This document shows, piece by piece, positions 11,461 to 12,769 of a stretch of 47,812 nt of DNA. Source of the DNA: Clostridia bacterium. GTDB lineage: Bacteria; Bacillota; Clostridia; Oscillospirales; Acutalibacteraceae. The stretch is from positions 1-47,812 of the forward strand of contig JAFSEF010000079.1 of assembly GCA_017435865.1 (NCBI GenBank). The letters run 5' to 3'. Below the pieces are notes generated by a model that was not told the origin of the DNA, did no database searches, and worked only from the letters and a program-made list of their open reading frames with translations. Numbering within the stretch: position 1 is the stretch's first letter; every line of letters begins with the position of its first letter. The position numbers and the translations under genes were made by a program.

Positions 11461-11497
11461 ACCGCCGCAGGTCCCGTGACCCACGGCGGTATTGTTT
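11461..11497 (+). terminator. Possible terminator after the PLP-enzyme gene
   Basis: A GC-rich 7-bp stem (ACCGCCG 11461-11467 with CGGCGGT 11484-11490) with weak AT-rich extension is followed by ATTGTTT. The T-run is poor, so leaky termination is possible. Confidence 0.5.
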
Positions 11498-11500
11498 CAC

Positions 11501-11529
11501 TTGCAAATTTTGTCGGAATATATTATAAT
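11501..11529 (+). promoter_or_regulatory. Promoter of the 35-aa holin-like toxin transcript
   Basis: TTGCAA (11501-11506), a 17-bp spacer and TATAAT (11524-11529). Transcription should begin near 11536, giving an untranslated leader of about 84 nt. Confidence 0.8.
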
Positions 11530-11539
11530 GTCAATCGGG

Positions 11540-11613
11540 CAAGGCAGACCTTAAACGGTAGGCGGTTACCTTCCGACTTCGGAGGGTGTCTTTTTCCCTC
11601 CGGAAAGGAGGGG
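11540..11613 (+). promoter_or_regulatory. Structured toxin-mRNA leader that can hide or free the ribosome binding site
   Basis: Three short blocks can pair in two exclusive ways. GGAGGG (11581-11586) pairs with CCCTCC (11596-11601), which leaves the ribosome binding site free. Alternatively CCCTCC pairs with GGAGGG (11607-11612), which is the Shine-Dalgarno itself and would be masked. The leader also begins with CAAGGCAGACC, which is complementary to the 3' part of the same transcript (11794-11804). Confidence 0.6.
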
Positions 11614-11619
11614 ATGCAC

Positions 11620-11727
11620 ATGGTAACTTATGAAGCGCTTTTTATGTTATTGAGCCTTCTTGTTGCAGTCATTGCAATTGTTATCAATATGATGAATTTC
11701 ATCATAAACATAACAAAAAAGAAATAA
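11620..11727 (+). CDS. 35-aa holin-like hydrophobic toxin (type I TA type)
   Basis: This small membrane peptide starts MVTYEALFMLL, has a single hydrophobic segment (about residues 7-31) and ends in the basic tail ITKKK. That is the pattern of the putative holin-like toxin (Hol-Tox) peptides related to Bacillus TxpA/BsrG. An ATG six bases upstream also fits, but it touches the very strong AAAGGAGGGG ribosome binding site. Longer in-frame readings start before the leader and are unlikely. A consensus promoter faces the gene from the other side, and its RNA would cover the last codons and 3' end. When overexpressed such peptides usually depolarise the membrane; that is family knowledge, not shown here. 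Confidence 0.75.
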   Translation: MVTYEALFMLLSLLVAVIAIVINMMNFIINITKKK

Positions 11728-11807
11728 CCGCCCCCAATCTTCCAAATTAGTGCGGTTATTTCTTATCTAACATTGGAAGGCTAACCGTCTATCGGTCTGC
11801 CTTGTTC
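11713..11807 (-). ncRNA. Predicted convergent antisense RNA (antitoxin) to the holin-like toxin mRNA
   Basis: A roughly 95-nt RNA is predicted from a perfect consensus minus-strand promoter to a terminator hairpin with a 12-bp stem (11720-11731 with 11752-11763), followed on that strand by CTTTTTTG. It would be fully complementary to the toxin mRNA from its last codons into its 3' part. This matches the tail-to-tail layout of txpA/ratA and bsrG/SR4 in Bacillus. No small ORF with a ribosome binding site is seen in it. Confidence 0.7.
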
Positions 11808-11813
11808 ACTTAT

Positions 11814-11842
11814 ATTATATCAGCATTGTTTTATTCTGTCAA
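11814..11842 (-). promoter_or_regulatory. Consensus promoter of the antisense RNA
   Basis: On the minus strand TTGACA (11837-11842), a 17-bp spacer and TATAAT (11814-11819): a perfect match to the sigma-A consensus, stronger on paper than the toxin promoter (TTGCAA). Confidence 0.88.
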
Positions 11843-11867
11843 CACCCGATTCGGGTGTTTTTTTACT
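11841..11867 (+). terminator. Terminator of the long toxin mRNA
   Basis: A compact hairpin (AACACCCGA 11841-11849 with TCGGGTGTT 11851-11859) is followed by seven T. It would end a toxin transcript of about 330 nt that includes the 3' fold-back sequence. It overlaps the -35 box of the antisense promoter. Confidence 0.75.
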
Positions 11868-11869
11868 TT

Positions 11870-11989
11870 ATAGGAAACTGCGTTTCCATAAAGTAAAAAA
11901 TATTGTATGTCCCTCCGAACGCACGCTTCACGTGCTCGGAGATGGACGAATCGAAAACGGTCGCCGCGTTACGGCGAAGCCGTTTTCTT
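11870..11989. repeat. Left 120-bp inverted repeat of a small cassette
   Basis: It is nearly identical, in inverse orientation, to 12442-12562; the only difference seen is CCCTCCGAAC against CCCTGGCGAAC. The repeat is itself made of three palindromes: GGAAAC/GTTTCC near its outer end, GCACG/CGTGC in the middle and GAAAACGG/CCGTTTTC at the inner end. It starts 3 bp after the toxin-transcript terminator. Confidence 0.9.
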
Positions 11990-12383
11990 ATTCTGTTTTT
12001 AAAAGCTTCAGCATTGGCACCTGTGCAATCAAGGTCAGGGAAATCAGCAGTCCGACCACTGAAAAATACTCCAATCCGAACAGCAGCGGTCCGAATGAAA
12101 GAATACAGGCAACAAGCAGCACATATTTTGCGGCAGTACGAAGCTTATCTTTTCCCGTCAGGCAAAATACCAGCAGCAACAAGAACACAACTACTGTCAG
12201 CACCGCTGTAATAAAGGGAGTGAAGTTAGCATAACCGTAAGGTGTCAGGCTGAAATAAGAAAATGTTTCACGCCACGGCTCACCCTCGGCATTTGCAAAC
12301 CTGCAGACTGCACCATAGGGCAGAATCTCAAGCACCAGTGTCACAAGCGGCAACAAAAGAAGCAGAAAACTTTTCTTTTTCAT
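11988..12383 (-). CDS. Small integral membrane protein inside an inverted-repeat cassette
   Basis: Unrecognised membrane protein of 131 residues with about four hydrophobic segments (residues 5-23, 54-76, 83-102, 104-124). Between the first two lies an outside-type loop rich in aromatic residues (EGEPWRETFSYFSLTPYGYANF). The start ATG has AAAGGAG at 9 bp; longer in-frame readings run into the repeat and lack a ribosome binding site. The stop codon overlaps the inner end of the left inverted repeat. No consensus promoter is visible between the right repeat and the gene. Function unknown. Confidence 0.75.
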   Translation of the reverse strand: MKKKSFLLLLLPLVTLVLEILPYGAVCRFANAEGEPWRETFSYFSLTPYGYANFTPFITAVLTVVVFLLLLVFCLTGKDKLRTAAKYVLLVACILSFGPLLFGLEYFSVVGLLISLTLIAQVPMLKLLKTE

Positions 12384-12441: not shown

Positions 12442-12562
12442 AAGAAAACGGCTTCGCCGTAACGCGGCGACCGTTTTCGATTCGTCCATCTCCGAGCACG
12501 TGAAGCGTGCGTTCGCCAGGGACATACAATATTTTTTACTTTATGGAAACGCAGTTTCCTAT
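12442..12562. repeat. Right 121-bp inverted repeat of the small cassette
   Basis: This is the reverse-complement partner of 11870-11989, with the same three nested palindromes. Together with the left copy it encloses about 450 bp containing one gene, and it ends 5 bp from the terminator of the next small gene. No target-site duplication is obvious just outside the repeats. Confidence 0.9.
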
Positions 12563-12567
12563 ATAAT

Positions 12568-12600
12568 AAAAAAACAACACGGCTGCCCGTGCTGTTTTTT
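12568..12600 (-). terminator. Terminator of the 51-aa ORF
   Basis: A 10-bp stem with one G-T pair (12573-12582 with 12587-12596) and a 4-nt loop, followed on the minus strand by seven T. Confidence 0.88.
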
Positions 12601-12613
12601 ATCAAAAATCTGA

Positions 12614-12769
12614 TTATTCTGTTTCGTTTTCTTCGCCGACATTGGTGCCTTCGTGGCTGGGATATTTGATAATGCCCAGGTATTCAAGCACAGAGCCGAA
12701 AATAACTTCCAGCCAGGAAAGAAGTACGTGAACAAAATCGGGGATCGCATTCATCATATCGTTATACAT
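12614..12769 (-). CDS. 51-aa small protein of unknown function
   Basis: Small ORF starting MYNDMMNAIPDFVHVLLSWL. It has an amphipathic hydrophobic middle (about residues 9-33) and an acidic tail ending GEENETE. It has a good AAAGGAG ribosome binding site 9 bp before the ATG, a perfect consensus promoter and a clean terminator, so a dedicated transcript of about 230 nt is likely. An ATG ten codons upstream is possible but lies before the ribosome binding site. I do not recognise the family. Confidence 0.65.
   Translation of the reverse strand: MYNDMMNAIPDFVHVLLSWLEVIFGSVLEYLGIIKYPSHEGTNVGEENETE

What the first reader, a model, noticed from the sequence alone, without database searches (positions are those of the whole stretch)
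11494..11867. Complete type I toxin-antitoxin-like locus with a holin-like peptide and convergent antisense RNA
Seen: a 35-codon hydrophobic ORF with a very strong ribosome binding site, a 17-bp-spaced promoter on the plus strand, a perfect consensus promoter on the minus strand, and a shared 12-bp hairpin with a T-run on the antisense side. Known: Hol-Tox/TxpA/BsrG peptides are controlled by tail-to-tail antisense RNAs. Inference: this is a chromosomal type I system of that kind. Such loci are often missed because the ORF is short and the RNA unannotated.
Basis: partly seen in the sequence, partly recalled or inferred. Interest (0 to 1): 0.8.

Follow-up and report, generated by a model that had tools for sequence, protein, structure and literature searches.

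The report
Widespread antisense-controlled membrane-peptide toxin cassette
A gut bacterium carries a 370-base gene pair, a tiny membrane peptide that is probably toxic and a small RNA that probably keeps it silent, which belongs to a large family in related bacteria and whose messenger appears to fold so that its own tail influences whether it is read.

Summary
Window 11501-11866 is one cassette: a 35-aa membrane-peptide ORF, a plus-strand promoter, a consensus minus-strand promoter, and an antisense terminator whose U-tract overlaps the last codons. It recurs: 28 credible antisense loci in 5 of 26 genomes of the genus (22 with an intact peptide ORF), and matches in 100 of 394 genomes sampled in the order. 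So the type I toxin-antitoxin reading holds as an inference from sequence; no transcript or toxicity was measured. The peptide scores below the Hol_Tox cut-off (11.3 against 23.3 bits) and the RNA below Rfam BsrG (27.7 against 55). Yet a relative's peptide on the same RNA frame reaches the Hol_Tox cut-off, and four readable Hol_Tox loci show similar leader/3'UTR pairing. The antisense 5' end therefore resembles the leader and should compete for the 3'UTR. Folding predicts that the free mRNA opens its Shine-Dalgarno site cheaply (2.4 kcal/mol) and that antisense cover locks it (9.6); the shift holds in most relatives tested. It works like bsrG/SR4: a compact, nested variant.

The parts
11501..11529 (+). 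toxin promoter, TTGCAA-17-TATAAT; start predicted near 11536
   Evidence: 10 of 12; a -10-like box is recognisable by reading in most of the 20 aligned copies, not in L048 and L059
11537..11574 (+). mRNA leader, 5' strand of the long-range helix (11537-11550 and 11557-11574); its end, 11569-11574, is the pyrimidine element Y1
   Evidence: predicted fold; covariation
11580..11586 (+). purine element R1, which can pair with Y1 or with Y2 (anti-SD)
   Evidence: forcing R1 single-stranded raises the SD opening cost by more than 1 kcal/mol in 32 of 33 cassettes with an R1
11594..11614 (+). hairpin hiding the Shine-Dalgarno site: Y2 (11594-11601) pairs with 11607-11614
   Evidence: 83.4% of cells paired on A1 (helix 3)
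11620..11727 (+). 35-aa hydrophobic peptide ORF with C-terminal KKK, proposed toxin; last codons and stop overlap the antisense terminator
11713..11807 (-). antisense RNA, about 95 nt (ends inferred); 5' hairpin, terminator hairpin 11719-11764, U-tract
   Evidence: relatives
11719..11764 (-). antisense intrinsic terminator, 13-bp stem (11719-11731 with 11752-11764)
11775..11807 (+). 3'UTR strand of the long-range helix in the toxin mRNA; also the target of the antisense 5' half; 11775-11780 (GGAAGG) is the R3 element that pairs with Y1
11814..11842 (-). antisense promoter TTGACA-17-TATAAT with extended TG
   Evidence: 12 of 12; -35 found in 26 of 28 genus loci
11841..11866 (+). toxin mRNA terminator; overlaps the antisense -35
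   Evidence: recognisable by reading in most of the 20 aligned copies

Best explanation
A type I toxin-antitoxin cassette. The plus-strand mRNA (about 330 nt, inferred) encodes a 35-aa membrane peptide, presumably toxic when overproduced. The minus-strand RNA (about 95 nt, inferred) is complementary to the last codons and the 3'UTR of that mRNA and keeps it silent. Control works at a distance. The mRNA leader pairs with its own 3'UTR (supported by covariation). This ties up the pyrimidine stretch Y1, which leaves the purine stretch R1 free to compete for the anti-SD stretch Y2, so the Shine-Dalgarno site can open (predicted by folding). The antisense RNA starts with nearly the same sequence as the leader and takes the 3'UTR away (inferred). 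Y1 then pairs with R1, Y2 stays on the Shine-Dalgarno site, and translation is locked. The duplex is probably also cut by RNase III, as in bsrG/SR4 (inferred by analogy). The nascent leader, before the 3'UTR is made, is in the locked state too (predicted), which would give the antisense time to act. Rough step probabilities: type I TA-like silencing 0.85; long-range mRNA helix 0.9; SD relay 0.45 (lowered from 0.5 on re-check, because the Y1:R3 part of the helix is its least conserved part); peptide toxic at high dose 0.8.
For: Conserved cassette and antisense promoter. Of 26 peptide-found loci scanned, 20 gave an RBS and a peptide, and all 20 have the antisense motif; L043 has a diverged version by reading. 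Cognate leader/3'UTR duplexes are far stronger than non-cognate ones: median -46.8 against -32.2 kcal/mol; 68 of 84 loci in the best 5%. Mismatches outside the core: 78 G.U against 38 A.C (p = 2.6e-4); in the core 110 against 1; by genome 27 against 9, 14 equal. Pair counts on 46 rows: 19 of 53 pairs with both sides changed (12 of the 32 leader/3'UTR pairs), against 13.1 in shuffles and at most 12 when slid. SD opening cost: window 2.4 free, 9.6 covered; 43 cassettes median 5.9 against 9.6, 40 up and 2 down by more than 0.5; second set of 77 loci, 6.6 against 9.0, 61 up and 7 down, 41 of 46 genomes. Controls: shuffled 3'UTR 9.3 (higher than natural in 39 of 41), swapped 8.1 (35 of 41), R1 blocked 11.0. 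Decay is lopsided: 6 of 28 antisense loci have neither intact toxin ORF nor leader, 5 of these keep the antisense -35; no toxin-only locus among the 21 readable ones.
Against: No transcript, toxicity or structure was measured. The minimum-energy fold keeps the SD hairpin closed both with and without antisense cover, so the relay rests on opening costs, not on a switch of the best fold. The Y1:R3 pairs are the worst kept part of the helix in the A1 register: unpaired in 10 to 29 of 46 rows per pair (columns 52-57). About nine of the 46 A1 rows lack a Y1/R1 hairpin by reading. L046 (8.9 to 8.0) and one L115 cassette (6.2 to 3.5) move the wrong way, and so do 7 of 77 in the second set. 139 mismatches outside the core are transversions, which fit neither reading. 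51 of 155 model-selected loci had no leader by my motif and 20 no anchor, and were not tested. The A1 columns fixed by the search motif cannot vary. Two genus cassettes with an intact peptide lack the leader (L304, L314). Loss of toxin but not of antitoxin could also reflect weaker detection of decayed toxin halves.
Confidence: 0.7

Rival explanations
1. Degradation only, as reported for RatA/txpA and SR5/bsrE: the antisense pairs with the 3' end, RNase III cuts, and the RBS structure is not changed.
For: The predicted antisense is complementary to about 95 nt of the mRNA 3' half. PMC6562991 (passages) reports no conformational change for RatA and SR5. The RBS hairpin stays closed in the best fold in both states, and the Y1:R3 pairs are poorly kept.
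Against: The cognate 3'UTR lowers the SD opening cost, shuffled and swapped ones mostly do not; that would be unneeded here.
Confidence: 0.35
2. Hok-like: the 5'-3' helix makes the full-length mRNA inert and shields it from the antisense; 3' processing activates it.
For: The helix is very strong and includes the extreme 5' end. 5'-3' closure as an inert state is known from hok (recalled; no call).
Against: Folding predicts that loss of the 3'UTR makes the SD harder to open (nascent leader median 9.2 against 5.9 for the full mRNA).
Confidence: 0.15
3. The inverted repeat is the terminal repeat of a small mobile DNA element, not an RNA structure.
For: Multicopy, tandem and patchy: 5 of 26 genomes of the genus, 13 antisense hits (12 credible) in one.
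Against: Conservation runs outside the repeat into the promoters and the terminator (by reading). Mismatches are biased to G.U on the sense strand, which a DNA repeat would not show.
Confidence: 0.05
4. A regulated small membrane protein that is not a toxin, silenced by an antisense RNA.
For: Peptide sequences vary widely on one RNA frame, and toxicity is untested.
Against: Hol_Tox-like members, predicted multi-layer silencing, presence in phage gene clusters, and antisense-only remnants.
Confidence: 0.15

Closest known systems
bsrG/SR4 (B. subtilis; Rfam RF01412)
   Same: Short membrane toxin; SD held in a hairpin; antisense bound at the mRNA 3' half, including the 3' part of helix P1; the antisense strengthens the SD helix (PMC6562991 and PMC7430163, passages). 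The Rfam model also pairs the 5' and 3' ends and has the lowest E-value of the sub-threshold hits (7.6e-5).
   Different: 27.7 bits against a gathering score of 55. Antisense about 95 nt (inferred) against 180 nt, and nested in the mRNA. bsrG extends the SD helix from 4 to 8 bp; here an 8-bp hairpin exists in both states and its opening cost changes.
bsrE/SR5, bsrH/as-bsrH and Hol_Tox (PF16935)
   Same: About 30-aa peptides with a C-terminal basic tail. A relative's peptide on this RNA frame reaches the Hol_Tox cut-off. In four readable loci with Hol_Tox matches over the cut-off the cognate leader/3'UTR duplex is the strongest in each row, 4 of 4, narrowly for L346 (-36.7 against -35.0) (L346, L349, L350, L361).
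   Different: The window peptide scores 11.3 bits against 23.3. SR5 is 163 nt (PMC7430163). That BsrE/BsrH themselves are Hol_Tox is recalled; the search shows only that Hol_Tox rings in B. subtilis.
Fst/par (pAD1)
   Same: Short membrane toxin, antisense from a facing promoter, SD and 5' end hidden in the mRNA (PMC7472228, passages).
   Different: par uses direct repeats crossed by both RNAs and a two-way terminator; here the repeat is inverted, the only direct repeat found inside the cassette has one copy outside the antisense, and the shared hairpin has a T-run on one side only. No PXXXG motif in the peptide.

Membership tests
Hol_Tox (PF16935) | peptide reaches the curated score | tested here: not met
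   11.3 bits against 23.3, aligned over residues 1-34; relative L069 23.3 = cut-off; 24 of 71 chosen scaffold peptides at E <= 0.1
bsrG/SR4 RNA family (RF01412) | covariance-model score at or above gathering | tested here: not met
   27.7 bits against 55, E 7.6e-5; 0 of 26 genus genomes over the cut-off
bsrG/SR4-like type I TA | facing antisense gene over the 3' half of the toxin mRNA, with its own promoter and terminator | tested here: met
   (sequence only)
bsrG/SR4-like type I TA | SD sequestered in the mRNA, held more firmly when the antisense binds | tested here: inconclusive
   supported by opening costs; the best fold shows the same SD hairpin in both states; not probed
type I TA | peptide toxic, antisense transcribed and neutralising | not testable with these tools
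   needs expression and RNA data
Fst/par | direct repeats crossed by both RNAs | tested here: not met
   one direct repeat of 8 nt or more inside 11530-11866, with one copy (11853-11864) outside the antisense; the main repeat is inverted
Fst/par | PXXXG motif in the toxin | tested here: not met
   the window peptide has no proline

The most novel reading that the evidence does not exclude
One conserved RNA frame, common in the order and sparse beyond it, carries many dissimilar small membrane peptides. In it the 3'UTR is a built-in activator that opens the Shine-Dalgarno site through a Y1-R1-Y2 relay, and the antitoxin is a leader mimic that removes the activator, so silencing acts from the far end of the mRNA and the toxin part can be exchanged freely.
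Probability: 0.4. Interest if true: 0.7.

Novelty: new variant of a known kind. Interest (0 to 1): 0.5.

Why it matters
Genes this short are easily missed by annotation; here one genome has 12 credible antisense loci, and matches occur in a quarter of the sampled genomes of the order. The covariation gives a concrete model, testable with in vitro RNA alone, of how an antisense RNA at the 3' end of an mRNA can influence a ribosome binding site about 170 nt upstream, and it links Hol_Tox loci with bsrG-like control.

Tried and rejected
First switch model: I expected the best fold itself to open the SD when leader and 3'UTR pair; it does not, so I fell back on opening costs. DNA terminal-repeat reading: rejected on the G.U/A.C bias. 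Fst/par: repeats and motif do not fit. PSM-alpha (NCBIfam 15.4 against 33 bits), MHYT (13.2 against 21) and holin (PHROGs, 5 of 71 members, best 4.6e-4) were weak. PADLOC: 1 of 71 members. Phages and plasmids by tblastn, with the L069 peptide only: no match; three IMG/VR contigs do carry the antisense motif. Empty-site comparison: two close relatives lack the cassette beside the same upstream gene, but the downstream sequence also differs, so there is no clean insertion boundary. Literature: searches of the held library listed no paper that, by title and start of abstract, describes this family in these bacteria; one search was swamped by its second term and tells nothing. PMC10903887, which holds the words holin-like toxin, was not read. 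The library lacks most subscription journals, and two key bsrG/bsrE papers were not held. Papers were seen as passages or single sections only.

Rows dropped: from the pattern scan, one search left out the matches without an A-run (L066, L070, L072, L075, L081, L082, L093, L111 and one in L126; some of these are real cassettes by reading, such as L081); L106 and L118 were dropped and L113. Own-genome loci were not among the 155 model-selected loci, and those 155 are part of the matches; the list was itself cut. Some of them look like chance terminators by reading (L166, L178, L179). Two of the 84 testable loci are also in the first, pattern-selected set (L136 = L035, L137 = L097).

Full report
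What is there. Window 11501-11866 reads as a closed unit: a plus-strand promoter, a leader, a hairpin over a strong ribosome site, a 35-aa hydrophobic peptide ending in KKK, an antisense gene on the minus strand with a full-consensus promoter, and a plus-strand terminator that overlaps the antisense -35. The last codons and stop of the peptide lie in the U-tract and stem of the antisense terminator. The upstream gene is a methionine gamma-lyase family gene (PF06838).

Conservation. In the same genome the nearly full unit recurs at 76-78% identity on three contigs, and one of these has a second, truncated copy in tandem. A peptide search found matches in 15 of 98 genomes at E <= 1; of 26 of its loci that I scanned, 20 gave an RBS and a peptide ending in K, and all 20 have the antisense motif. 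They align over the unit, but two (L048, L059) have a replaced or diverged leader. A pattern of 18 fixed bases from the antisense 5' end occurs in 71 stretches of the named genome collection, mostly Clostridia and Oscillospiraceae MAGs, many from ruminant guts, with a few chance hits in other phyla, and in 3 viral contigs. A covariance model of the antisense RNA has matches at E <= 0.01 in 100 of 394 genomes of the order (54 of 169 genera), in 16 of 299 of the phylum sample, and in 5 of 26 of the genus. Some weak matches are chance terminators by reading; of 155 loci taken from the first two lists, 84 in 50 genomes have both an antisense anchor and a leader by motif, and 105 in 60 genomes a peptide ORF.

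The peptide. It is far from constant: 141 distinct peptides were read on this RNA frame, 21 to 44 aa (a few carry a wrong start or may be wrong frames). 140 of 141 have at least two K or R in the last five residues, which is partly built in, because my filter wanted the stop inside the A-rich antisense terminator. Coding is real: median dN/dS 0.22. 24 of 71 chosen peptides match Hol_Tox at E <= 0.1. The window peptide does not reach the cut-off; that of L069 just does. Two 23-aa peptides of another group show no Pfam match at E <= 1. That one RNA frame can carry different toxins is known for bsrG loci (PMC6562991, section 2.9).

The RNA. In the predicted fold, 32 pairs join the leader to the 3'UTR. 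I tested this without using the pairing to find the partners: for 84 of 155 model-selected loci (51 had no leader by motif, 20 no anchor) the cognate duplex was -46.8 kcal/mol at the median against -32.2 for partners from other genomes, and 68 of 84 were in the best 5%. Mismatches lean to G.U over A.C, outside the core 78 to 38 and inside it 110 to 1; there are also 139 and 10 transversions. The bias places the selection in the plus-strand RNA rather than in a DNA repeat. Two G.U pairs in the core are kept in 46 and 45 of 46 rows; they make the leader a slightly weaker partner than the antisense, whose 5' end otherwise resembles it. On alignment A1, 19 of 53 pairs have changes on both sides (12 of them among the 32 leader/3'UTR pairs), against 13.1 in shuffles and at most 12 when slid; the 5'-terminal helix has 95.7% of cells paired, but the Y1:R3 end is unpaired in 10 to 29 of 46 rows per pair. 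A1 was collected by a motif, so some of its columns are fixed by construction.

The switch. By eye the leader holds Y1, R1, Y2 and the SD in series, with R3 in the 3'UTR complementary to Y1; about nine of 46 rows lack the Y1/R1 hairpin. The best fold keeps Y2 on the SD in both states, against my first model. But the cost of opening the SD differs: window 2.4 kcal/mol free, 9.6 with the 3'UTR covered, 9.1 for the nascent leader. Over 43 of the 46 cassettes with a leader the medians are 5.9, 9.6 and 9.2; 40 rise by more than 0.5 and 2 fall, L046 and one L115. With shuffled 3'UTRs the cost is 9.3 (higher than natural in 39 of 41), with swapped ones 8.1 (35 of 41), with R1 kept single-stranded 11.0 (33 with an R1). 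In a second set, 77 of the 84 model-selected loci, 61 rise and 7 fall, shuffles are higher in 66, and 41 of 46 genomes go the predicted way. Two of those 84 loci also occur in the first set. This is the same outcome as SR4 strengthening the SD helix of bsrG (PMC6562991; PMC7430163), with a proposed route for it. On re-check I lowered the relay step from 0.5 to 0.45 because of the Y1:R3 counts.

Decay and mobility. In the genus 28 of 29 antisense hits look real; 22 have an intact toxin ORF (two of them without the leader) and 6 do not, and 5 of the 6 keep the antisense -35. No toxin without antisense was seen among 21 readable loci. This is what one expects if the toxin half is the dangerous one, though decayed toxins are harder to see. 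On viral contig L134 a cassette lies between the portal and the major head genes, and on L132 one lies two ORFs upstream of a tape-measure-like gene.

Comparison with known systems. It works like bsrG/SR4. It is not a member of RF01412 by score (27.7 against 55 bits), nor is the peptide a member of PF16935 by score. Of eight chosen loci with Hol_Tox matches over the cut-off, four could be read (the others end at contig ends); in all four the cognate leader/3'UTR duplex is the strongest of its row, clearly in three and narrowly in L346. So Hol_Tox loci and this family probably share the RNA frame. What sets this variant apart is the short antisense nested within the mRNA, with its promoter overlapped by the toxin terminator. 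Transcript ends are inferred, so that geometry is too.

Noticed in passing
window 11862-11992 and 12442-12570: A roughly 130-bp interspersed repeat, with 29 copies at 88-100% identity over at least 115 bases in this genome. One copy abuts the toxin terminator T-run; another (C51:16111-16238) lies just after the C51 cassette. It has short inverted ends.
   Followed up: partly
window 12617-12769, minus strand: A 51-aa ORF downstream of a full-consensus promoter (12860-12832), found at 73-84% identity in three other genomes of the genus; these three also carry the cassette. Function unknown.
   Followed up: partly
L326 (G014), downstream of the cassette: The end of the methionine gamma-lyase gene and its terminator is repeated just after the cassette (82% over 61 bases), as if the cassette sat inside a local duplication.
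   Followed up: partly
L090, L115, L158 and contig C86 of the own genome: Cassettes in tandem a few hundred bases apart; contigs C76 and C86 begin inside cassettes, probably because repeats break the assembly.
   Followed up: no
L088 and L117: The cassette leader directly follows a sequence resembling the 3' end of a tRNA or tmRNA gene, a possible integration site; resemblance by eye only.
   Followed up: no
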